Shown here piece after piece: positions 26,321 to 57,142 of a stretch of DNA of 64,000 nt (position 1 is the stretch's first letter; the number at the start of each line of letters is the position of its first letter). Location of the stretch: the IMG/VR virus record IMGVR_UViG_3300033153_013547, positions 186,001-250,000 of that record; one strand, given 5' to 3'. Position numbers and translations under genes: made by a program. The notes beneath the pieces were generated by a model. That model saw nothing but the letters and a program-made list of their open reading frames with translations. It was not told where the DNA came from and searched no databases. Source of the stretch: a virus.

Positions 26321-26647
26321 TTACTCCTCAATTCTTTTTACCTGATCAATTGAAATAGGCTCATAGCACCTTATTTGCCAATCATCACCTGCATACTTTC
26401 CTACAGGCAGCGTTACTTCCAACAATACTTCTGGAACAGCCCATTCTCCACTGCCATCGTTTTTGCCATATCGAGCATGTTCTTTCTTCAAAGCAAGCCA
26501 TGTTACACGACTCATCAAAGAGCCTTCCCAATATTGGTTCTTACGCCCCCATAAAACCCCTTCTTCCTGTATTTCCTTCCATGCTTTCTCTGTTGTGGCA
26601 TGATATGCCTTAAAGACTGGTTTATTCATCAACACTTCTTCCGTCAT
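26321..26647 (-). CDS. Possible ART-fold protein, 108 aa
   Basis: The sequence YHATTEKAWKEIQEEGVLWG, then VTWLALKKEHARYG, then VLLEVTLPVG and a final YEPISIDQVKRIE resembles the pattern of ADP-ribosyltransferase-fold or KptA-like proteins: His-containing first strand, 'I..eG' helix, aligned 'lt...e.A..Y' segment. Catalytic residues cannot be assigned with certainty. If correct, it could modify host proteins or RNA. ATG 26647 is used; ATG 26629 (MNKPVFKAYH) with GGAAGA upstream is an equal alternative. Confidence 0.5.
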   Translation of the reverse strand: MTEEVLMNKPVFKAYHATTEKAWKEIQEEGVLWGRKNQYWEGSLMSRVTWLALKKEHARYGKNDGSGEWAVPEVLLEVTLPVGKYAGDDWQIRCYEPISIDQVKRIEE

Positions 26648-26736
26648 TTATTTTGTCACCCCAATGACTATACATACTTCCTGCCATCAATAAATCTCTG
26701 TAAAACTTTCTCTTGAATGCTCTTGTTCAGTTCATT

Positions 26737-27024
26737 TTACTCATCATCCAAATACTCAGGCTCATATTCTTCCCCATCCATATATGCCTGTATTTTTTTA
26801 TATGCTTGTTTTCTATTGTTGTCAGCCTCAGCATTTTTCTCTGCATTCTCTGCTGCTTTTCTTAATATTGTGGTTGTTTTGTATTTCAACACTTCTTCTA
26901 CTCGTGAATCTGGCTGATCATCTCTCCATGCCTTACATTTAGGACAGCATTCCATAGACTTTGGATGAATATAATCATGCTCACATTCACAATCCCAATA
27001 CCTTGGATCAAGTTCAATAGTCAT
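26737..27024 (-). CDS. Zinc-ribbon protein with helical tail, 95 aa
   Basis: N-terminal zinc-binding pattern CECEHDYIHPKSMECCPKC provides Cys/His ligands, followed by a charged helix rich in Ala, Glu and Lys (about residues 45-80). Such small phage zinc ribbons often act as adaptors, but no function is known. After the TAA stop the same frame stays open for 22 codons (a stretch ending QRFIDGRKYV), so the gene may once have been longer. Confidence 0.6.
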   Translation of the reverse strand: MTIELDPRYWDCECEHDYIHPKSMECCPKCKAWRDDQPDSRVEEVLKYKTTTILRKAAENAEKNAEADNNRKQAYKKIQAYMDGEEYEPEYLDDE

Positions 27025-27030
27025 TTTGTC

Positions 27031-27381
27031 TCACCTCACATTCACTGGTTTGTCTGTTATATCTATCAGACAAAGATTTGGGGCATCTCCATAACCATCA
27101 GACCCATCTATCTCAAGATAGAAGATCTTCTTCTCTTGTAGAACATTGTATAAATAGTCAATGATACCATCTATATCATATTGATCTATCTTATTTACAA
27201 ATGCCTTTGTAAAATAACTATATTCATCCTCATCAAAAGATCCTGATGTAATAGAACTCTTGATGTTATCAAGATCTGGCTTGAACCGTTTAAACAGATT
27301 CTTTATGCCTTCTTTGCTATAATTCACTAGATAAATATATTCACCACCAAATGAAGTATAAACTATCATTGTTGTCGTCAT
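27031..27381 (-). CDS. Hypothetical protein, 116 aa
   Basis: Begins MTTTMIVYTSFGGEYIYLV, then a helix IKNLFKRFKPDLDNIKSS, and ends with a beta strand FYLEIDGSDGYG. The acidic small alpha/beta protein shows no known motif. It is co-oriented and 6 nt upstream of the zinc-ribbon gene. A ribosome binding site (GTGGAGGAAG) lies 8-15 nt upstream of its start. Confidence 0.55.
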   Translation of the reverse strand: MTTTMIVYTSFGGEYIYLVNYSKEGIKNLFKRFKPDLDNIKSSITSGSFDEDEYSYFTKAFVNKIDQYDIDGIIDYLYNVLQEKKIFYLEIDGSDGYGDAPNLCLIDITDKPVNVR

Positions 27382-27595
27382 TGTGCTTCCTCCACTTTTT
27401 ATTATTGACTACCAGCAGAATTACCCAGTTAGGTTTTTTCATTCTGACCCCTGTTTATCAACCCATTATATGATTGTTGCTCTATACAAATGGACATTCC
27501 CGTCATCTGCTATAGCATAGAAATACCATGTAACCTGATCATTAGAATAGTACGCTACTCCATCTATTATAACTGTATAAGCAAAACCACTGTTA

Positions 27596-30741: not shown

Positions 30742-31682
30742 TTCATTCTCCTGTTTTTTATGAAAATTCTACTATACATTCTTTTGCCATTTATATACCC
30801 ACGCCCTTTGGAAATTTCTAAATCATACTCATTTCCCAATATTTCAAACTGCTCAGGATTGTATTTACTTAAAAATGTAATAGGCACACCCATAACACCA
30901 TCATAATCCATGGGTATATTTTTCACTTTATTAACCTCGATAGCATCGTAGTTATCATATTTTGGGTAGACCTCTTCATTTTTATAGTATTTCTTATACA
31001 AAATCAAATCTTCATGTCTTTTGGGATAGTCTAAATTGGTGAACCAACTTATAGCAGGAACCTTCCCATATTTCTTGCCAGTTTTTTCATCAATTCTATT
31101 CCATCTTTCATAATCATCAGATAGTCCAAATTCCATTACTATATTGGAGCTATTGCCCAACCAAATCTTATTTTCCTTGATCAACTTGAAAATTTCTTTG
31201 TAAGTAATAGCATTTTGATTACCAATTATTATAAATTTCTTGTCATATTCTATCAATTGATCAACATATTCCCTAAACAATGAAAAGGGTGGATTGGTGA
31301 CTACAACATCTGCTTCCTTCAATATCTCTATACATTCAGGACTTCTAAAATCACCATTTTGCTTCAAGGGGGTTTTTATGGTGTCCATCTTATTTATCTT
31401 GCCATCATCATTGATGTCAGCAATAAGTTCCAGTTTATATGACGGCTTATCTGTCTCAAAATGGGTGGCAATTAGTTTTTTTAGCCCCAGATGCTCAAAA
31501 TTCAAGGCAAAATAATTCCAGAAATTACTCTCTTCAGGATCATCACAATTGCAGAATATAATTTTACCTTTTAGGTGATCTTTATAGTGCTTCAATTCCC
31601 TTTCTATATCTGCTAATTGCGTATAAAATTCATCATTCTTTGCTTTCTTTGCTTGATGTAAATTTTTATTGGCTGCCATCAC
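30738..31682 (-). CDS. EcoRI-type adenine DNA methyltransferase, 314 aa
   Basis: N6-adenine methyltransferase of the M.EcoRI-like family. The N-terminal signature NKNLHQAKKAKNDEFYTQ, then DIERELKHY and FCNCDDPEESNFWNYF, is characteristic, and the catalytic motif NPPF is at residues 130-133. Its length (about 314) is close to M.EcoRI (326). Without a cognate nuclease beside it, it probably protects phage DNA from host restriction. Recognition of GAATTC-like sites is only suggested by family. It overlaps genes on both sides by 4 nt. Confidence 0.85.
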   Translation of the reverse strand: MMAANKNLHQAKKAKNDEFYTQLADIERELKHYKDHLKGKIIFCNCDDPEESNFWNYFALNFEHLGLKKLIATHFETDKPSYKLELIADINDDGKINKMDTIKTPLKQNGDFRSPECIEILKEADVVVTNPPFSLFREYVDQLIEYDKKFIIIGNQNAITYKEIFKLIKENKIWLGNSSNIVMEFGLSDDYERWNRIDEKTGKKYGKVPAISWFTNLDYPKRHEDLILYKKYYKNEEVYPKYDNYDAIEVNKVKNIPMDYDGVMGVPITFLSKYNPEQFEILGNEYDLEISKGRGYINGKRMYSRIFIKNRRMK

Positions 31683-31948
31683 TCATCCCTCATCATACTA
31701 ATATCTTTCAATCTTTCTACTGCCTTCTCATAATATTCCATACTTTCGACAACATGTTTCCATTGAATATAAACAACATCAAGCTGTCCATGTTCATCAA
31801 CAAGTTTTTTGGCTGATTCCAGTACTGCTTGTTCTGTATTTTCTGCTGGAATATCAATAAATTTTAGAAATGTTGTGTCTAATTTCACAACATACCAGCC
31901 ATCCTCTTCTCCGTCCATTTCTGTTATACGATATTTATCTTCGCCCAT
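31679..31948 (-). CDS. Small hypothetical protein with methyltransferase-like tail, 89 aa
   Basis: The first 60 residues resemble a recurrent small phage module (WYVVKLDTTFLKFIDIPAENTEQAVLESA). The last part, YYEKAVERLKD, matches the C-terminus of the methyltransferase at 33605-34378 (YYDKAVERLKD), also in DNA: 34 of 35 bases agree between 31703-31737 and 33662-33696. It looks like a fusion produced by recombination. It overlaps the EcoRI-type methyltransferase gene by ATGA. Confidence 0.55.
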   Translation of the reverse strand: MGEDKYRITEMDGEEDGWYVVKLDTTFLKFIDIPAENTEQAVLESAKKLVDEHGQLDVVYIQWKHVVESMEYYEKAVERLKDISMMRDE

Positions 31949-31996
31949 CTAATCACCTCGGTTATCATTCCACTTTGTCCAGGAATTGTCTTTCCA

Positions 31997-32308
31997 CTAA
32001 ATATAGTATAAGCCAACAATACTTACCACAACAGACGTGATAGACACAACGAGCGCCGTGATACTTATTGCACGATTCCTTTGTCCCTCCCAGTATACCA
32101 TAAAAACCTCTGCAGCGTCCTGAAGATCTTGCTTCCATTTGTCTATGCCCAGACATTTTTCTATGCCCATATTATCTATATATGGATCAATCCTCCACCA
32201 CATATCACCAATGGCTTTTATTTCTTTCAAGGGCATAATTTTGGCATATATTCGTTCGACCCTAGCTTTTTCCTTGCTTCGGTGTATTGACTTGTATTTT
32301 TTGCTCAT
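31997..32308 (-). CDS. Tail-anchored membrane protein, 103 aa (paralogue)
   Basis: Paralogue of the protein at 27596-27934: SKEKARVERIYAKIMP, WWRID and KWKQDLQDAAEVF align with it. One C-terminal membrane helix (about residues 80-102, SITALVVSITSVVVSIVGLYYI) anchors it, with the N-terminal domain probably cytoplasmic. It lies between the nuclease/methyltransferase pair and the EcoRI-type methyltransferase. The function is unknown. Confidence 0.62.
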   Translation of the reverse strand: MSKKYKSIHRSKEKARVERIYAKIMPLKEIKAIGDMWWRIDPYIDNMGIEKCLGIDKWKQDLQDAAEVFMVYWEGQRNRAISITALVVSITSVVVSIVGLYYI

Positions 32309-32309
32309 T

Positions 32310-32924
32310 TTACTTTCTTAGTACGAATTTGTCGATACTTCGCTGATACACTTTCCATCGATCAAATATTTTATCTTGATCTGATATCTCGAAGCGAATT
32401 GCGTATTCGTTGTTGGTATTGTTCTTGCCTGATTCCCTTGTGCCATGAGCATAACCAGCCTTAGTTAGATCAAGCTCTTTATGCATTTCATTATTGGTTA
32501 ATAGGAAAGTATAACGAACGAACTCCTCACTTCTTATGTCAAATGCTTCAACAATATAGTCTACTTCCTGCCAAGGTCTGATCTGCACTATGTTTACATT
32601 GGAACCATCGTGCATCAGCAGCGAGCACTTATATTCGAAATGGATACCATTAGCATTTCTACAATCTCCCCTACCATCAGATGCCTTGACTTTCACCAGC
32701 CCGTTTTCTCTTATGAATCTATTTTCTATTCTAGGAGCAAATGCCTGACTACTTAAGAACGACATACCATATATAAAATATTCCCAACTTTCATTGTTTC
32801 CCCAGCTCCTATCTTTGCCAATAGTTGTCTTGATATAGTTCGGTATTTTACTAGCCTCTTTTAATTGTTGCAAAGTTAGCTTGATTTTCTGCAATTCTTT
32901 TGACCGCCTTGTCGTAAAACTCAT
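32310..32924 (-). CDS. Candidate type II restriction-like nuclease, 204 aa
   Basis: The central sequence SDGRGDC...GIHFEYKCS gives Asp87 and Glu97-Tyr-Lys99, the PD-(D/E)XK arrangement of type II restriction enzymes. The N-terminal 50 residues are helical and the rest alpha/beta. Its ATG lies 74 nt inside the end of the methyltransferase gene at 32851-33603, and the tight overlap suggests a restriction-modification pair. No recognition sequence can be given. It could also be a non-restriction nuclease of the same fold. Confidence 0.5.
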   Translation of the reverse strand: MSFTTRRSKELQKIKLTLQQLKEASKIPNYIKTTIGKDRSWGNNESWEYFIYGMSFLSSQAFAPRIENRFIRENGLVKVKASDGRGDCRNANGIHFEYKCSLLMHDGSNVNIVQIRPWQEVDYIVEAFDIRSEEFVRYTFLLTNNEMHKELDLTKAGYAHGTRESGKNNTNNEYAIRFEISDQDKIFDRWKVYQRSIDKFVLRK

Positions 32925-51048: not shown

Positions 51049-51300
51049 TTAATGTTGCAATGTAGCAATAACACTCACTATATGATCGAATTTTACATAA
51101 TAATATCGATCAATAACCGTAGGTTTGGTGACATCAAACATCGATCCACAGATATCTCTTCTGTCTTTCATTTGATGAACCAATTCTTCTACTTCATGAG
51201 AAGATATGTTCTCTAAATCTATTACATGTAACTCCCCATGAATTTCCACTTTTATTTCAACATCATAGAAATCATCATCTCTAAAATTCAGTTCTTTCAT
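51049..51300 (-). CDS. Hypothetical protein, 83 aa
   Basis: Small acidic alpha/beta protein (FYDVEIKVEIHGELHVIDLE, then SHEVEELVHQMKDR, then YYVKFDHIVSVIATLQ). It overlaps the C-terminal polymerase gene by ATGA and so is cotranslated with it. Function unknown. Confidence 0.55.
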   Translation of the reverse strand: MKELNFRDDDFYDVEIKVEIHGELHVIDLENISSHEVEELVHQMKDRRDICGSMFDVTKPTVIDRYYYVKFDHIVSVIATLQH

Positions 51301-52391
51301 GATGGTTCTTTTACCTCCAACTGTTCCAACTCAAACACTTTCTTAATTACTATTGTGCCTCTATTACTTACCTTTCCCTCAATACACACAGGATTATTAT
51401 TAACCAGTAATCCCAGTGAGGCAATATCTTTCTCATCATCTTCATCATAAAAATATATGCATGGTAGATGAGTTATCCCGTCAGAAATTTCAAACACAAG
51501 GTAAGGGGTTCCTTTTCTGCTAATAAATGATCTTCTTGAAGAAACAAGACCAACATACTGCCCCTGAACCTTGCCTATTTGTCTTGATTCCGTAGGATTA
51601 TGAGCTCCTGCAGGTATATTATAAGCATCTAAAATGCCACCAGAAATATACACTCCCAAGATCTCAAACTCCATGGAACTTAATTCAGCCTTACTAAACT
51701 CCCCTATGATTACAAGTTCATCTATATCTAGATCAAGAGGTAATGGCTCACGTGATTCTGCCTTTTTATTCTTTAGCCTTGCTTTATTCTTAGCATTCCA
51801 TTCATGTATTTTTCTATAAGCATATAAGAGAGCTTTACGTGTCAGCACAACATCACTATTATCTAACAGAGGTATACCATCAAACGCACCTATTTTGATT
51901 AGATTAATCATTCCATCTTTACGTGCTGTGCCCCTAACTACAATATCCTGCACAGATTTATATGGTCCATTGTCTTCTCTGTTTTTTACAATGACACTGG
52001 CTGAATTTAGCCCCACCTTCCTTACAGAAGTCAGCCCAAACATAATATGTCTAACTTTGTCATCGTCTTCATATGGTGTAAACATAGTACCAGAAATGTT
52101 GATCCTTGGTGGTGAGAGCTTTATTTTCAATTGTTTACACTCCTTCATGAAATCCCTAAGAGTATTCTCAAGATCATCTCCACTTTTAGACTCAATAGCA
52201 TCAATCATAGATGCAGCAATAAAAATATGTGGCCAGTATGTTTTTACATAGGCAGTATGATAGGTCAAGATAGCATAAGATACTGAATGACTGTTCTGAC
52301 TAACCAAAAATTGTTTAGCCCTTTCATCTGTTACTAGATAATTGTGAGGAGGACCATCAAGTGAAAGACTTATAAAGGCTTTTTTATTCAT
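51297..52391 (-). CDS. dnaE: C-intein plus C-terminal part of DNA polymerase III alpha, 364 aa
   Basis: Third piece of the fractured polymerase. Residues 1-33 are a C-terminal intein half: FISLSLDGPPHNYLVTD (block F) and FLVSQN (block G) with terminal Asn33. The extein begins at Ser34 with SHSVSYAILTYHTAYVKTYW, exactly the DnaE sequence that normally follows YGFNK. Then come fingers sequence (FGLTSVRKVG, GPYKSVQDI) and a C-terminal OB-fold-type region (GKVQGQYVGLVSSRR...GTPYLVFEISD). ATG 52391 is chosen because it gives a C-intein of typical length and overlaps the preceding stop as ATGAATAA. Protein trans-splicing to the 558-aa piece is inferred. The penultimate intein residue is Gln instead of the usual His. 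Confidence 0.88.
   Translation of the reverse strand: MNKKAFISLSLDGPPHNYLVTDERAKQFLVSQNSHSVSYAILTYHTAYVKTYWPHIFIAASMIDAIESKSGDDLENTLRDFMKECKQLKIKLSPPRINISGTMFTPYEDDDKVRHIMFGLTSVRKVGLNSASVIVKNREDNGPYKSVQDIVVRGTARKDGMINLIKIGAFDGIPLLDNSDVVLTRKALLYAYRKIHEWNAKNKARLKNKKAESREPLPLDLDIDELVIIGEFSKAELSSMEFEILGVYISGGILDAYNIPAGAHNPTESRQIGKVQGQYVGLVSSRRSFISRKGTPYLVFEISDGITHLPCIYFYDEDDEKDIASLGLLVNNNPVCIEGKVSNRGTIVIKKVFELEQLEVKEPS
52293..52391 (-). other. C-terminal half of split intein (33 aa)
   Basis: Protein splicing element. It codes for MNKKAFISLSLDGPP followed by HNYLVTDERAK and QFLVSQN. Block F (D..PHNYLV) and block G (ending in Asn before Ser+1) are visible. Length matches known IntC fragments (about 35 residues). 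Its partner is at 52868-53155. Confidence 0.85.
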
Positions 52392-52872
52392 ACCTTGTTC
52401 CCATCCATCTACAGACAATTAATCCAGAATTGATCTTTTCATAATTCACACAAATATCCAAAAACTGATCAACAGTAGCAATAGCACTATCAGTTCCTGC
52501 TGTTTTTAGTGCTCTTGCAAATATTTGCCTATTTTTATCCTGATCTATTACACCACGAATATTCTCCATTACATTCCACTTTTGAGCCATTTGTCTAATA
52601 CAAGTCCAGTGAGTCATCAATATAGGATCCTTGTTGATATTACGTCCATATCCACGAATTGTGGGTAGTTCAGAGGCACCAGCCTGCTTAAATACTTTTG
52701 ACATACTACGTATTATGCTTGATCCCTTACAATAAAAATAATCAGTTCCTGGTAACTCATCACGTTTAACTACAATAGCTGTTGTTGATCTCATCCTTGT
52801 ATCTTTAGGTAATTTGATCAAATAGTAATTATTACCACATATACTAACTTTGCCAATTATATTGTTATCCAT
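52384..52872 (-). CDS. Unknown protein encoded between the split-intein halves, 162 aa
   Basis: ATG 52872 overlaps the end of the N-intein gene by 8 nt and its stop overlaps the C-intein gene start by 8 nt, so all three are translationally coupled. Sequence: IIGKVSICGNNYYLIKLPKD at the start, then STTAIVVKRDELPGTDYFY, KVFKQAGASELPTIRGYGRN, MTHWTCIRQMAQKWN and a helical end. I find no LAGLIDADG, HNH, GIY-YIG or EDxHD nuclease motif, so it is not an obvious homing endonuclease. Fractured genes in metagenomes often hold a homing endonuclease in this place. Function unknown. Confidence 0.75.
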   Translation of the reverse strand: MDNNIIGKVSICGNNYYLIKLPKDTRMRSTTAIVVKRDELPGTDYFYCKGSSIIRSMSKVFKQAGASELPTIRGYGRNINKDPILMTHWTCIRQMAQKWNVMENIRGVIDQDKNRQIFARALKTAGTDSAIATVDQFLDICVNYEKINSGLIVCRWMGTRYE

Positions 52873-54541
52873 CAATTAATAGTCCTTTATTATCTATTAC
52901 AACTAGACAATTACACTCATTTGGCATTTTATACCCATCTTCATTGAGGAAGTAATGATCTCTTGTGCATTCTATTTCAACATTTTCATTGCCTACTTTA
53001 ACTATTGGTTCATCAAAAGCAAAAGTTACTGCTCTCACAGTATTAGTTATTATTCCACCATTGCCCACATAAGAATAAATAGTATCTCCAAAGTTCAACT
53101 GATCTATTCTTACAAGACCACTTGGTGTCAAAACCAAAGTATCTTCACTCAGACACTTATTGAAACCATAATTTCCAAAACCTTCTATCTGTTCCCATAG
53201 TTTGGTAGCTTCTTCTAACGTCCAGCCTGAATGACGGACACAACCATCAATAAATTTTGGCTTAGCCTGAGCAAGCTTAGAGGACAACTTTTTACCAACA
53301 ATTCTTCTTAGGTTATCCCCCTCATTAGGACTAAACCCAGCAATTTTCTGAGCTATTTCTATAATACTTTCTTGGTATATGATAAGACTAGAAGTTTTTT
53401 CCAATATAGGTTTCAGATCATCATGCAAATATTCTGGCTTTGTCCTTCCATGCCTAAGAGAAAGGTATTTTTCTTCAAATCCTGCTGACATAGGTCCAGG
53501 TCTGTGTAGAGCTATAACATCTGAAATATCTTCTATGCTAGTAGGCATACATTTCTGCATAGTTTTCCTGATCCCCACAGATTTCATTTGAAATAACCCA
53601 GCATACAAGCCTTTTTGCATAAATTCAAAAACCTTAGGATCATTCATGGGAATATCATCAATAGTCATACTATTTTCAATGTATCCCATGCTATGAGCCA
53701 TATTCAAAGTGTTTTGTATAACTGACAATGTGCCAAGACCTAAAAAATCTATTTTACATAAGCCTGCTAACCCTGCAGACTTCATATCTAGTTGCACAAC
53801 ATTGTTACCACTAGCATCTACATACATAGGCACAATTGACTGCAATGGCTCATTAGATATTATGATCCCAGCAGCATGCAATCCAGTCTGTCTATAATTT
53901 TGCCTGAGGGAATTAAATATAGCAATAAATTCATCTATGTCCTCAAGACAATTTTCACCCAAAGTCTGCTTGCTTACCTCAACAATTTTAGCAACATACT
54001 GCCTTAGTTCTTCATGAATAAATATTTCATCAGTCCCTATCCAGTCTCCAGTGCTCATATCTACATTAGTAGCAGGCAAATACATTTTAGATATCAAGCC
54101 AACAGATGCTTCTTCACTGCTTCCACATATACATCTAACTATGTCTCTAAAAGCAGACTTAGGTTTGTATTCTGCATAAGTGCCTATGCTGGCAAAATAT
54201 TTGTTACCATATTTACTTCTGACAGCATCTTTCACTCTGTCTCTACCATACTTGTCAAAATCTATGTCAAAATCTGGTTGCTCTCTTTTGACAACAAGAC
54301 CAAACTCTCCATCAGGTTTTTTGCTTGTGATCCCAAGAGCATATGCTAACAATGAATTAGTCTTGTTCTTGTTGCCTGCTCCACAATCACAAGCCTTATT
54401 GATCATATAAATCATATGATCATCAACATGATAGAATTCATATAAATCAAGTTCGTTAGAGATCCTGTCCATCTCTTCTTTACTAAACTTTTTCTCCCAT
54501 CGTTCAGTCTGCTGGTGACAAAAATCCCTTAGTTGGCTCAT
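52865..54541 (-). CDS. dnaE: Central part of DNA polymerase III alpha with N-intein, 558 aa
   Basis: Second piece of the polymerase. Catalytic palm motif PDFDIDF at residues 89-95 (Asp90, Asp92) and KIDFLGLGTL with Asp265 supply the three metal-binding acids of the C-family polymerase. Fingers motifs follow (LFQMKSVGIRKTM, HRPGPMSAGF, IIYQESIIEIAQKIAGFSPNE, LRRIVGKK) up to FGNYGFNK at 455-462. At Cys463 a 96-residue N-intein begins. Residues 25-88 contain a degenerate second copy (CGAGNKNKTNSLLAYALGIT) of the segment ending the PHP piece. Splicing would join Lys462 to Ser34 of the downstream piece. Confidence 0.9.
   Translation of the reverse strand: MSQLRDFCHQQTERWEKKFSKEEMDRISNELDLYEFYHVDDHMIYMINKACDCGAGNKNKTNSLLAYALGITSKKPDGEFGLVVKREQPDFDIDFDKYGRDRVKDAVRSKYGNKYFASIGTYAEYKPKSAFRDIVRCICGSSEEASVGLISKMYLPATNVDMSTGDWIGTDEIFIHEELRQYVAKIVEVSKQTLGENCLEDIDEFIAIFNSLRQNYRQTGLHAAGIIISNEPLQSIVPMYVDASGNNVVQLDMKSAGLAGLCKIDFLGLGTLSVIQNTLNMAHSMGYIENSMTIDDIPMNDPKVFEFMQKGLYAGLFQMKSVGIRKTMQKCMPTSIEDISDVIALHRPGPMSAGFEEKYLSLRHGRTKPEYLHDDLKPILEKTSSLIIYQESIIEIAQKIAGFSPNEGDNLRRIVGKKLSSKLAQAKPKFIDGCVRHSGWTLEEATKLWEQIEGFGNYGFNKCLSEDTLVLTPSGLVRIDQLNFGDTIYSYVGNGGIITNTVRAVTFAFDEPIVKVGNENVEIECTRDHYFLNEDGYKMPNECNCLVVIDNKGLLIDG
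52868..53155 (-). other. N-terminal half of split intein (96 aa)
   Basis: Begins with Cys1 as CLSEDTLVLTPSGLVRIDQL and NFGDTIYSY (block A) and contains IECTRDHYFLNEDGYKMP (block B with the T-x-x-H motif). It ends with a stop after NKGLLIDG and carries no endonuclease domain. Length is normal for IntN of split inteins (about 100). The insertion is between GFNK and SHS of DnaE, a few residues from the site of the cyanobacterial split DnaE intein. Confidence 0.9.
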
Positions 54542-54599: not shown

Positions 54600-54917
54600 T
54601 CAGTCTGCTTCTTTGTCAAACAACTGGGGCATCATGGATTCTAACATATCTGTTACATCATCTAACCTTTCCTTTAGTATATCAATCTTTTCTTCCAGTG
54701 CTTCAAGCTTCTGACTCATGTCTTCTGTATAGATCACATGGGTTGGAGCAGGAGGATAACCACCATCAGGATAAGGTAAGGGAGTACCAATAAATGAGTC
54801 AGGAATTAGTGGATCCTGCTTCCATGTATAATCAGTTGTTCCACTATCTGTGATTTCTATCCAATTGTGATCATTGGTGCGGTAAATTCCATGCATACTA
54901 TTATCATCACTAAACAT
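54600..54917 (-). CDS. Coiled-coil protein, truncated paralogue, 105 aa
   Basis: The C-terminal part (KLEALEEKIDILKERLDDVT, then DMLESMMPQLFDKEAD) is a coiled coil nearly the same as in the protein at 55539-55910 (KIDKLQEDIGILKDKLED, DMLESAMPKLSDKEADWMR). Here TGA replaces the Trp codon after KEAD, and the frame continues open for 15 codons (MREPLDKEATETKEI). So it looks like a copy with a shortened end. The N-terminal 55 residues are unrelated. It lies between two polymerase pieces. Confidence 0.6.
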   Translation of the reverse strand: MFSDDNSMHGIYRTNDHNWIEITDSGTTDYTWKQDPLIPDSFIGTPLPYPDGGYPPAPTHVIYTEDMSQKLEALEEKIDILKERLDDVTDMLESMMPQLFDKEAD

Positions 54918-54925
54918 TTACACTC

Positions 54926-55549
54926 TCACTTCCTTTGGTAATTGTGCGCCAATAATTGTATATCATCACTATGACGCAAACCTACTTTCTCTAACCTCTC
55001 TGCCTCGCGTTTTATTACATACAAACACAATGACGGCTTAGCAAGTAACATTCGCTTTGTTGCAGTAAAGGCATAATCATTACAATAACCATAATAACCA
55101 CCCTTACACAAATTATCTAATTTGTGGGCATAACGTTTGCCTGCAGAGGTAAGATCTAGTCTATAGGTGAATTTTTCATTCCACTCTAACATTTGAAAGG
55201 GAAATTCTGCCACATAATGACTTTCTATGTATGCCCTATATGGATCAAGTAAATAAGCATGTCGACCTGCATTTATTCTGGTAGTCTTGATCATCCCAAA
55301 TGCCACTAAATAATTTATTGCTTCAAATAGTTGCTTACTACATGCACCATACTTTGTCATAATAAAATCATTTTTCAGATTTATTTTATTATGCCTATGT
55401 CCTAGTATACCTATACCAGGATGCATGTAAAGACACAGATAAGTCATGTCATCAAGACCCAGCACAGGTTTACTATTGTTATAAAACAGTATTCTAACAA
55501 CATAATCACGTATACCAAGGTCTAGAGGTTGCCATGTATTACCATTCAT
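54926..55549 (-). CDS. Hypothetical protein, possible winged helix, 207 aa
   Basis: ATG 55549 is preferred (GAGGAT 8 nt upstream). The segment CSKQLFEAINYLVAFGMIKT followed by AYLLDPYRAYI resembles the winged helix and 'YliNP' pattern of plasmid and phage initiator-like proteins. The rest is basic with several Tyr and His. DNA binding is a possibility only. It lies between polymerase pieces. Confidence 0.5.
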   Translation of the reverse strand: MNGNTWQPLDLGIRDYVVRILFYNNSKPVLGLDDMTYLCLYMHPGIGILGHRHNKINLKNDFIMTKYGACSKQLFEAINYLVAFGMIKTTRINAGRHAYLLDPYRAYIESHYVAEFPFQMLEWNEKFTYRLDLTSAGKRYAHKLDNLCKGGYYGYCNDYAFTATKRMLLAKPSLCLYVIKREAERLEKVGLRHSDDIQLLAHNYQRK

Positions 55550-55910
55550 GAGCACTATCCTCATCTAACGATTTTCTCATCCAATCTGCTTCCTTATCAG
55601 ACAATTTTGGCATCGCAGATTCTAGCATATCTATTATGTCTTCTAACTTATCTTTTAGTATGCCAATATCTTCTTGCAATTTATCAATCTTTTCTGCCAT
55701 GGATAGAGGCATAGCATATGATAACATGTTGGACATCATTGCCTGTGTATCTATTGCAACATCATTGTTGGGATCATTAAGAACACGTAAATCATCAATA
55801 TGATAATCACCCTGCACTCTATTTACGTCTGCTACCAATCTTGCTCTTGCTGGCTCTGACAACGATGACCAATCAAAAGATTGCAGAATTTCACCATCGT
55901 AATATACCAC
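55539..55910 (-). CDS. Coiled-coil protein, 123 aa
   Basis: Starts with GTG 55910 directly after the PHP-piece stop (TAGTG). A globular N-terminal part (LQSFDWSSLSEPARARLVAD) is followed by a coiled coil (MAEKIDKLQEDIGILKDKLE) and an amphipathic tail KEADWMRKSLDEDSAHEW. Full-length paralogue of the protein at 54600-54917. It might tether the separated polymerase pieces, but nothing shows this directly. Confidence 0.6.
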   Translation of the reverse strand: MVYYDGEILQSFDWSSLSEPARARLVADVNRVQGDYHIDDLRVLNDPNNDVAIDTQAMMSNMLSYAMPLSMAEKIDKLQEDIGILKDKLEDIIDMLESAMPKLSDKEADWMRKSLDEDSAHEW

Positions 55911-57142
55911 TATTCTTCACCTATTCCAAAATCATCATAGCACACAGTAGATCTACCATAATTCAAAAACCTGCTAAACATCAGCCCATACTTTATTGGA
56001 TCAACACTAGTTATACCAAGTGAGTATGCTGCAATTGATCCTGCTCCAGAACCTCTGCCTGCACCCACACCAACATTCAGCGTCCTTGCAGTATCTACTA
56101 TATCAGACACTAAAAGAAAATAATCTACATAGCCCATCTTGTCAATAATGAACAATTCATGATCTAATCTATCAGTAATTTCTTTAGACAAATTCTGGCT
56201 ATAGAGTTGTCTGGCTCCATCATAGCATTTGTCTCTAAGAATTTTTGTCTTATATGCATATGAAAGTGTCTTGTCTCTGATCCTAAATTCAGGCATATAT
56301 GATTTGCCAAGAGCAAGTTTAAACTCTACCTTATCTACTATTTCCATTGTATTCTGACAAAGAGGGATTGCATCTATGCCCACACTATTATATCTTTCTA
56401 TAATTTCATCATATGAATGAAGATAATAAGAATGAGTGCCTGAGAATGGTTTAATACCTATTTTGTTAGATGAAGAAAACCTTACTGCCTGCAAGAAGCC
56501 ATGAGCCTTCCAGTCAGAAGCATTTAGATAATGGGCATCTGTGGCACAAATAGTTTTGATGCCCATCTCATTCAGAAATACTTCTGCCACAACCTTTTCT
56601 TCTGGAATATCATGTGCATGAACTTCAAGATAAAAATCTTCCTTGAAGGCTTCTACAAACCTATCAAGCAGGGTTTTATACACATCCATATGTCCTGATG
56701 TAATAAGCCTTTGCAGACTTCCAGATATACAACTTGCTGTTGCTATGAGACCTTCAGAATTCTGCAAAACGCTGTCCATGGGAAAAATCGTTCGGCTGAT
56801 ATTGTCTCTACCCACTCTCGTTTTAGAAGCACCCAAAAGCTTGAGAAGATTATGCCAGCCTGCTTCGGTCTTTGCTATCAGAACCAGATGTGACTTAGGA
56901 TATTCTATGCCAAAATCAGAGTTGATATACTTTACATAAGCTTCTATTGCTATAATAGGTTTAATACCATAATTCTCACATTCAATAGTTTGCTCAACAC
57001 AAGCACCCAATGAGCCATGATCACTTATGGAGACTGCTTTTTGTCCTAGTTCTATAGATCTTTTAATAATATCTTTGGGTCTTCCAAGGGCATCAAGAAC
57101 AGAATAAGAACTATGAATATGAAGATCACAGAATTCACTCAC
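55910..57142 (-). CDS. dnaE: PHP-domain part of DNA polymerase III alpha, 410 aa
   Basis: First piece of the polymerase. An intact PHP domain with metal-ligand pattern H8-I-H10, D41-H42-G, E68, later H-A-H near 175-177 and D202-A-H204 suggests an active 3'-5' proofreading nuclease. The following palm part carries GRGSGAGS at 362-369 and ITSVDPIKYGLMFSRFLN. The normal continuation to the catalytic P-D-x-D motif is missing: the protein ends RSTVCYDDFGIGEE. It must pair with the 558-aa piece for catalysis. No intein is seen at this break. GTG start. Confidence 0.88.
   Translation of the reverse strand: MSEFCDLHIHSSYSVLDALGRPKDIIKRSIELGQKAVSISDHGSLGACVEQTIECENYGIKPIIAIEAYVKYINSDFGIEYPKSHLVLIAKTEAGWHNLLKLLGASKTRVGRDNISRTIFPMDSVLQNSEGLIATASCISGSLQRLITSGHMDVYKTLLDRFVEAFKEDFYLEVHAHDIPEEKVVAEVFLNEMGIKTICATDAHYLNASDWKAHGFLQAVRFSSSNKIGIKPFSGTHSYYLHSYDEIIERYNSVGIDAIPLCQNTMEIVDKVEFKLALGKSYMPEFRIRDKTLSYAYKTKILRDKCYDGARQLYSQNLSKEITDRLDHELFIIDKMGYVDYFLLVSDIVDTARTLNVGVGAGRGSGAGSIAAYSLGITSVDPIKYGLMFSRFLNYGRSTVCYDDFGIGEE

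What the first reader, a model, noticed from the sequence alone, without database searches (positions are those of the whole stretch)
51297..54541. Phage DNA polymerase III alpha split by a trans-splicing intein
Seen in sequence: the 558-aa gene ends FGNYGFNK then Cys-initiated intein blocks A and B and a stop; the 364-aa gene starts with a 33-residue C-intein (blocks F and G, final Asn) followed by SHSVSYAILTYHT. In ordinary DnaE, YGFNK is followed directly by SHS. So the two genes encode adjacent exteins joined by a split intein. Split DnaE inteins are known from cyanobacteria, and fractured genes with split inteins have been described in metagenomes; one in a phage replisome with this insertion point appears unusual.
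Basis: partly seen in the sequence, partly recalled or inferred. Interest (0 to 1): 0.95.

Follow-up and report, generated by a model that had tools for sequence, protein, structure and literature searches.

The report
Split-intein phage DNA polymerase III gene
A large uncultured phage encodes its DNA-copying enzyme in separate pieces, two of which end and begin with the halves of a self-removing protein tag (a split intein) that should weld them into one chain; this is a variant of an arrangement already known, and the same gene spot turns out to be a common target of such elements in phages and bacteria.

Summary
On the minus strand, 52865-54541 encodes the DnaE polymerase core ending YGFNK followed by a 96-residue N-intein, and 51297-52391 begins with a 33-residue C-intein ending Asn, directly followed by SHSVSY. 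With the intein removed, the exteins align across the junction without a gap to Taq and E. coli Pol III alpha (E 2e-79). A split intein working in trans is the best explanation. The insertion point is not unusual: a pattern scan found inteins at this FNK^SH site in 28 viral contigs (13 with a stop ending the N-half, most with endonuclease-like ORFs between halves) and in at least 58 bacterial DnaE genes. In one viral contig the two halves lie on opposite strands, so joining there must be in trans. This is therefore a variant of the published 'fractured gene'. Window-specific oddities: no recognisable endonuclease between the halves, and a C-intein lacking the strand that other C-inteins at this site carry, which suggests a shifted split point. 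Splicing itself is inferred, not shown.

The parts
53156..54541 (-). N-extein: DnaE palm and fingers (462 aa), with the catalytic-aspartate motifs PDFDIDF and KIDFLGL, ending YGFNK
52868..53155 (-). N-intein, 96 aa: Cys1, block A CLSEDT, block B ECTRDHYF
52384..52872 (-). 163-aa gene between the intein halves (162 aa from the ATG; a TTG lies at 52875). No family, no relative found; codon usage like phage genes
52293..52391 (-). C-intein, 33 aa, ending ...HNYLVTDERAKQFLVSQN; lacks the KIxSI strand present in other C-inteins at this site
51300..52292 (-). C-extein: rest of DnaE (331 aa) from SHSVSY; helix-hairpin-helix and weak OB-fold matches
55910..57142 (-). separate PHP-domain gene (410 aa), the N-terminal third of DnaE; its last ~100 residues overlap in homology with the start of the 558-aa protein and keep the intact GRGSGAGS motif

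Best explanation
This is a 'fractured' phage dnaE gene. A mini-intein inserted between Lys and Ser of the conserved YGFNK^SHS motif has been split into two genes, with a small third gene between them. The N-precursor (palm-fingers-IntN) and C-precursor (IntC-C-extein) should associate through the intein halves, which fold into one Hint domain. Cys1 attacks the Lys-Cys bond, Ser+1 takes over the N-extein, the terminal Asn cyclises, and the exteins are left joined as ...YGFNK-SHSVSY..., an ordinary DnaE core of about 793 aa that works with the separately encoded PHP protein. Shown: gene structure, homology, adjacency of exteins, IntN family, retained Cys1/TxxH/Asn/Ser+1. Inferred: association, splicing, and function of the joined enzyme.
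For: IntN is an intein N-domain by curated family and by a window-excluded model. IntC has the block F-G signature ending Asn before SHS; 8.5 bits against the window-excluded C model, 1 of 2000 shuffles as high, and the signature occurs at 8 of 22,660 ORF positions. Exteins join without a gap to Taq and E. coli Pol III alpha. No other Pol III alpha gene exists in the 261-kb record, so the broken one is presumably needed. The same site holds contiguous and split inteins in other phages; one contiguous 126-aa relative models as the gp41-1 fold (pLDDT 95.7, TM 0.92). In a sister contig the halves lie on opposite strands several genes apart, so joining there must be in trans.
Against: IntC alone is weakly supported by sequence and has no curated family hit. 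It is short and lacks one strand found in all compared C-inteins. Block F position 4 is Ser instead of Asp and the penultimate residue Gln instead of His, though several other split inteins here also have Ser or Asn at F:4, and cyanobacterial DnaE inteins have Ser or Ala at the penultimate position (PMC5874633). The joined intein could not be folded here.
Confidence: 0.82

Rival explanations
1. Decayed intein: the halves no longer splice, and the two DnaE fragments work, if at all, as a non-covalent complex.
For: C-intein short, missing a strand, F:4 Ser, penultimate Gln. PHP and core pieces are already separate proteins, so this phage tolerates a multi-piece DnaE.
Against: Cys1, block B Thr/His, block F His, terminal Asn and Ser+1 are all kept. 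The break lies inside the highly conserved fingers motif, with intein residues appended to both ends of it, which a non-covalent assembly would have to accommodate. Codon usage and reading frames are intact in both intein parts.
Confidence: 0.12
2. A contiguous intein read through by two ribosomal frameshifts, or broken by two assembly errors, with the 163-aa ORF as an internal domain.
For: The three ORFs overlap by 8 bases each and successive frames differ.
Against: Both junctions are start/stop overlaps of a kind seen elsewhere in this operon, including another 8-base overlap; two slips or errors exactly there are unlikely. Other phages at this site have IntN ending in a stop at the usual place and a separate ORF next, and in one the halves are on opposite strands.
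Confidence: 0.03
3. The intein is real and split, and the gene between the halves is a homing endonuclease of an unrecognised family that mobilises the locus, as the Vsr-like and LAGLIDADG-like ORFs may do in relatives. This is compatible with the best explanation.
For: Same position as endonuclease-like ORFs in L098, L102, L103, L106, L109, L115 and L116. Uma2-like ORF (by eye) at the same place in bacterial L140.
Against: No nuclease family, motif or relative found; AlphaFold model too poor to judge (pLDDT 45); L093 also has a short ORF without a family there.
Confidence: 0.3

Closest known systems
Fractured genes with split inteins (Dassa et al. 2009, doi 10.1093/nar/gkp095; paper not held here, known from citations and memory)
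   Same: Conserved replication gene broken by a split intein, halves in neighbouring genes, a free-standing ORF between them, in phage
   Different: The ORF between is not a recognisable endonuclease. Whether DnaE at this site was among their loci could not be checked.
Split PolB of Pseudomonas jumbo phage MIJ3 (PMC6892783) and the Aes123/CP21 PolB1 split inteins (PMC12707363; PDB 9hth)
   Same: Split intein in a phage replicative DNA polymerase; MIJ3 has an HNH gene between the halves
   Different: Family B polymerase, other insertion site; Aes123 and CP21 are cysteine-less inteins, here Cys1
Cyanobacterial split DnaE inteins (Ssp, Npu)
   Same: Split intein in DnaE; weak sequence match of IntN (E 0.04)
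   Different: Cyanobacterial site is four residues upstream (from knowledge); +1 residue Cys there, Ser here; genes far apart in the cyanobacterial genome, adjacent here
gp41-1 split intein (PDB 6qaz)
   Same: Mini-intein of similar size, Ser+1; a relative at this DnaE site (L120) models as this fold, TM 0.92
   Different: gp41-1 sits in a helicase; its C-intein is 37 aa (from knowledge), here 33
Phage split inteins in DnaE at FNK^SH found here (L098, L102, L106, L109, L114/L118, L115, L116, L108, L093)
   Same: Same insertion site, same split arrangement; several also lack PHP in the core gene
   Different: DnaE phylogeny does not put the window with them (a single clade is not rejected, AU p 0.255); different ORF between; canonical split point

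Membership tests
Split intein (trans-splicing) | N-half with Cys/Ser1 and blocks A and B, ending in a stop before block F | tested here: met
   TIGR01445 over cut-off in own genome; stop after 96 aa
Split intein (trans-splicing) | C-half with blocks F and G, terminal Asn/Gln and Ser/Thr/Cys+1, in a separate gene | tested here: met
   Signature present at the junction; 8.5 bits, 1 of 2000 shuffles; but not found by TIGR01443
Split intein (trans-splicing) | Exteins adjacent in the intact host protein | tested here: met
   Gap-free across the junction to Taq and E. coli Pol III alpha
Split intein (trans-splicing) | Halves fold as one Hint domain and splice | not testable with these tools
A contiguous relative models as a Hint fold
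Fractured gene (Dassa type) | Split intein halves in neighbouring genes of a conserved enzyme | tested here: met
Fractured gene (Dassa type) | Free-standing endonuclease gene between the halves | tested here: not met
   A gene is there but no nuclease family, motif or relative was found
Cyanobacterial split DnaE intein | Insertion at Tyr^CysPheAsnLys of DnaE | tested here: not met
   Insertion is after YGFNK, before SHS
DnaE-type DNA polymerase III alpha | PHP, palm with catalytic aspartates, fingers, C-terminal HhH/OB | tested here: met
   Domains found over three genes; the OB match is weak (E 0.05)

The most novel reading that the evidence does not exclude
The intein is split at a non-canonical place, inside the long hairpin strand before block F rather than in the loop where endonucleases insert, so that the N-half carries a strand that belongs to the C-half in all other split inteins compared at this site; and the gene captured between the halves belongs to no known homing-endonuclease family.
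Probability: 0.3. Interest if true: 0.6.

Novelty: new variant of a known kind. Interest (0 to 1): 0.45.

Why it matters
It adds a replicative family C polymerase, rare in phages, to the phage enzymes made in pieces and presumably welded by trans-splicing. It shows one DnaE site where intein-free, contiguous, endonuclease-bearing, split-with-endonuclease-like-ORF, split-without and opposite-strand forms all exist, a ready series for studying how inteins become split. New natural split inteins, especially one with a short C-half, are also useful protein-ligation tools.

Tried and rejected
1. Single-sequence search of viral contigs with the 558-aa protein found no relative. 2. MT836517 looked as if its match ran into the intein (query 4-496); it is an ordinary intein-free bacterial DnaE. 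3. The idea that the N-terminus of the 163-aa protein is a strayed C-intein hairpin: rejected, 1221 of 2000 shuffles score as well. 4. AlphaFold of the 163-aa protein: pLDDT 45, unusable. 5. One split event shared with the main split clade of phages: the tree does not show it, but the AU test does not exclude it (p 0.255). 6. A second, intact Pol III alpha in the same genome: none. 7. Dassa 2009 (PMC2677866) and Carvajal-Vallejos 2012 (PMC3436554) are not held, so whether DnaE at this site was listed there is unchecked. 8. RNA-level explanations: no Rfam family in 48-58 kb, no tRNA in the window.

Full report
What is there. The window is part of a 261,124-base virus record. Its minus strand holds a dnaE-type DNA polymerase III alpha gene in three main pieces: a PHP gene (55910-57142), a palm-fingers gene (52865-54541) and a C-terminal gene (51297-52391). 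It is the only Pol III alpha in the record. The palm-fingers protein ends YGFNK followed by 96 residues that open with Cys; the NCBIfam intein N-terminal model matches from exactly that Cys. The C-terminal protein opens with 33 residues ending in Asn and continues SHSVSYAILTYHT. Joining YGFNK to SHSVSY gives a protein that runs through the junction of Taq and E. coli Pol III alpha without a gap (E 2e-79).

Strength of the two intein halves. The N-half is solid. Among 1260 ORFs of the window, a model of other N-inteins at this site, built without the window, picks it alone (E 4.7e-5). The C-half is weaker. No curated family finds it. The window-excluded C model gives the 33 residues 8.5 bits, which 1 of 2000 shuffles reaches, and its ...HNY...N signature occurs at 8 of 22,660 ORF positions; but in the scan of all ORFs the intein-only model ranks this ORF third with E about 1.4, and only with eight extein residues is it the clear best (E 1.1e-5). 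Position is the stronger argument: the 33 residues sit exactly where the intein must end. Cys1, block B Thr-x-x-His, the block F His, terminal Asn and Ser+1 are present. Block F position 4 is Ser, as in L103 and L115. The penultimate residue is Gln; DnaE inteins of cyanobacteria also lack the penultimate His (PMC5874633).

Between the halves lies a gene of about 163 aa (52384-52872) that overlaps both neighbours by 8 bases. Its codon usage is that of phage genes (0.205 against 0.214 +/- 0.052 for true frames; wrong frames at most 0.08). No family, solved structure, phage record or viral contig shows a relative, and its predicted structure is of too low confidence to use.

Comparison with relatives. 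The closest DnaE proteins in viral contigs are 32-37% identical and nearly all intein-free. A DNA-pattern scan for F..Y[GA]FN[KR]-C-block A in viral contigs gave 30 stretches, of which 28 are DnaE genes with an intein start exactly there. They include contiguous inteins with HNH domains, contiguous mini-inteins, and 13 in which the N-half ends in a stop after about 100 residues: L093, L098, L100, L102, L103, L106, L108, L109, L112, L114, L115, L116, L118 (several near-identical). Most of the split ones have a long ORF with zinc-finger and Vsr-like features between the halves, L116 a LAGLIDADG-like ORF, L108 a DUF559-like ORF; these calls rest largely on weak Pfam matches and on reading the sequences. 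L093 has a short ORF with no family. In the contig of L100 the IntN gene is on the minus strand (30771-32615) and the IntC gene on the plus strand (26328-27578), about 3.2 kb apart with several genes between; such halves can only be joined in trans. In bacterial genomes the same site held contiguous inteins in 58 of the 80 stretches kept, plus one split case in a Blastocatellia assembly with a Uma2-like ORF (identified by eye) between the halves. So the insertion point is common, not unusual.

Origin of the split. In a tree of the palm-fingers part the window sits apart from the main clade of split phage DnaEs and near intein-free and contiguous forms. But its branch is long, and one clade of the window with the main split clade is not rejected (AU p 0.255). 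Independent splitting is possible, not shown.

Split point. All compared C-inteins at this site include a strand of the type KIxSI before block F; the window's does not, while its N-half runs several residues further (VVIDNKGLLIDG) than that of L102 (VVRP). A contiguous 126-aa intein at this site (L120) is predicted with high confidence as a gp41-1-like Hint fold, TM 0.92; in that model the strand and block F form one long hairpin (residues 91-110). Placing the window on it by eye puts the break inside this hairpin, whereas canonical splits fall in the loop before it. Automatic alignment leaves these residues unaligned, so this is an inference. An upstream TTG start would lengthen the C-intein to 42 aa, but the added residues do not resemble the missing strand.

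How it most likely works. Two precursors associate through the intein halves, the Hint domain forms, the usual class 1 reaction joins Lys to Ser, and a DnaE core of about 793 residues results, with its conserved fingers motif restored. It presumably works with the separate PHP protein, which carries the intact GRGSGAGS motif that is degenerate in the core protein (GAGNKNKTNS). Gene layout and homology are shown; association, splicing and enzyme function are inferred.

Known or new. Split inteins with a gene between the halves are the published 'fractured genes' (Dassa 2009, not held, cited in the paper). A jumbo-phage split PolB with an HNH gene between the halves is published (PMC6892783), as are phage PolB1 split inteins (PMC12707363). 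Family C polymerases are the rarest kind in tailed phages (PMC11348598). I found no held paper on a split DnaE intein in a phage at this site, but the key 2009 paper could not be read. I therefore file it as a new variant of a known kind: same mechanism by anatomy, different host protein and site from the published phage cases seen, no recognisable endonuclease, and probably a shifted split point.

Noticed in passing
G000:C1:115545-116324 (outside the window; locus L087): The same phage has a second, contiguous intein in a terminase-like gene at the P-loop (ARRQGK^C...HN^S).
   Followed up: partly
window 55910-57142 and 52865-54541: PHP protein and polymerase core both carry the first ~100 residues of the DNA_pol3_alpha domain (30% identical to each other); the GRGSGAGS motif is intact only in the PHP protein.
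   Followed up: partly
window 54600-54917 and 55539-55910: Two small genes between the PHP and polymerase genes share a 39-residue C-terminal segment (59% identity, E 9e-14), flanking an unrelated 212-aa gene.
   Followed up: partly
L137 (G001:C1:20000-38000): Phage dnaE whose split-intein halves lie on opposite strands, about 3.2 kb apart, with a duplicated 139-aa ORF next to the IntN gene.
   Followed up: partly
L140: Blastocatellia assembly with bacterial dnaE split at the same FNK^SH site; a Uma2-like ORF (by eye) lies between the halves.
   Followed up: partly
L116 and L108, upstream of the FNK^SH intein: A further C-intein-like end (...HN^SAAGS and ...HN^CTGQ) lies upstream in the same dnaE, suggesting more than one intein per gene.
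   Followed up: no
L082:6373-7876: In a phage with a contiguous HNH intein at this site, the PHP part of DnaE is separate and a 187-aa ORF lies between it and the polymerase gene.
   Followed up: no
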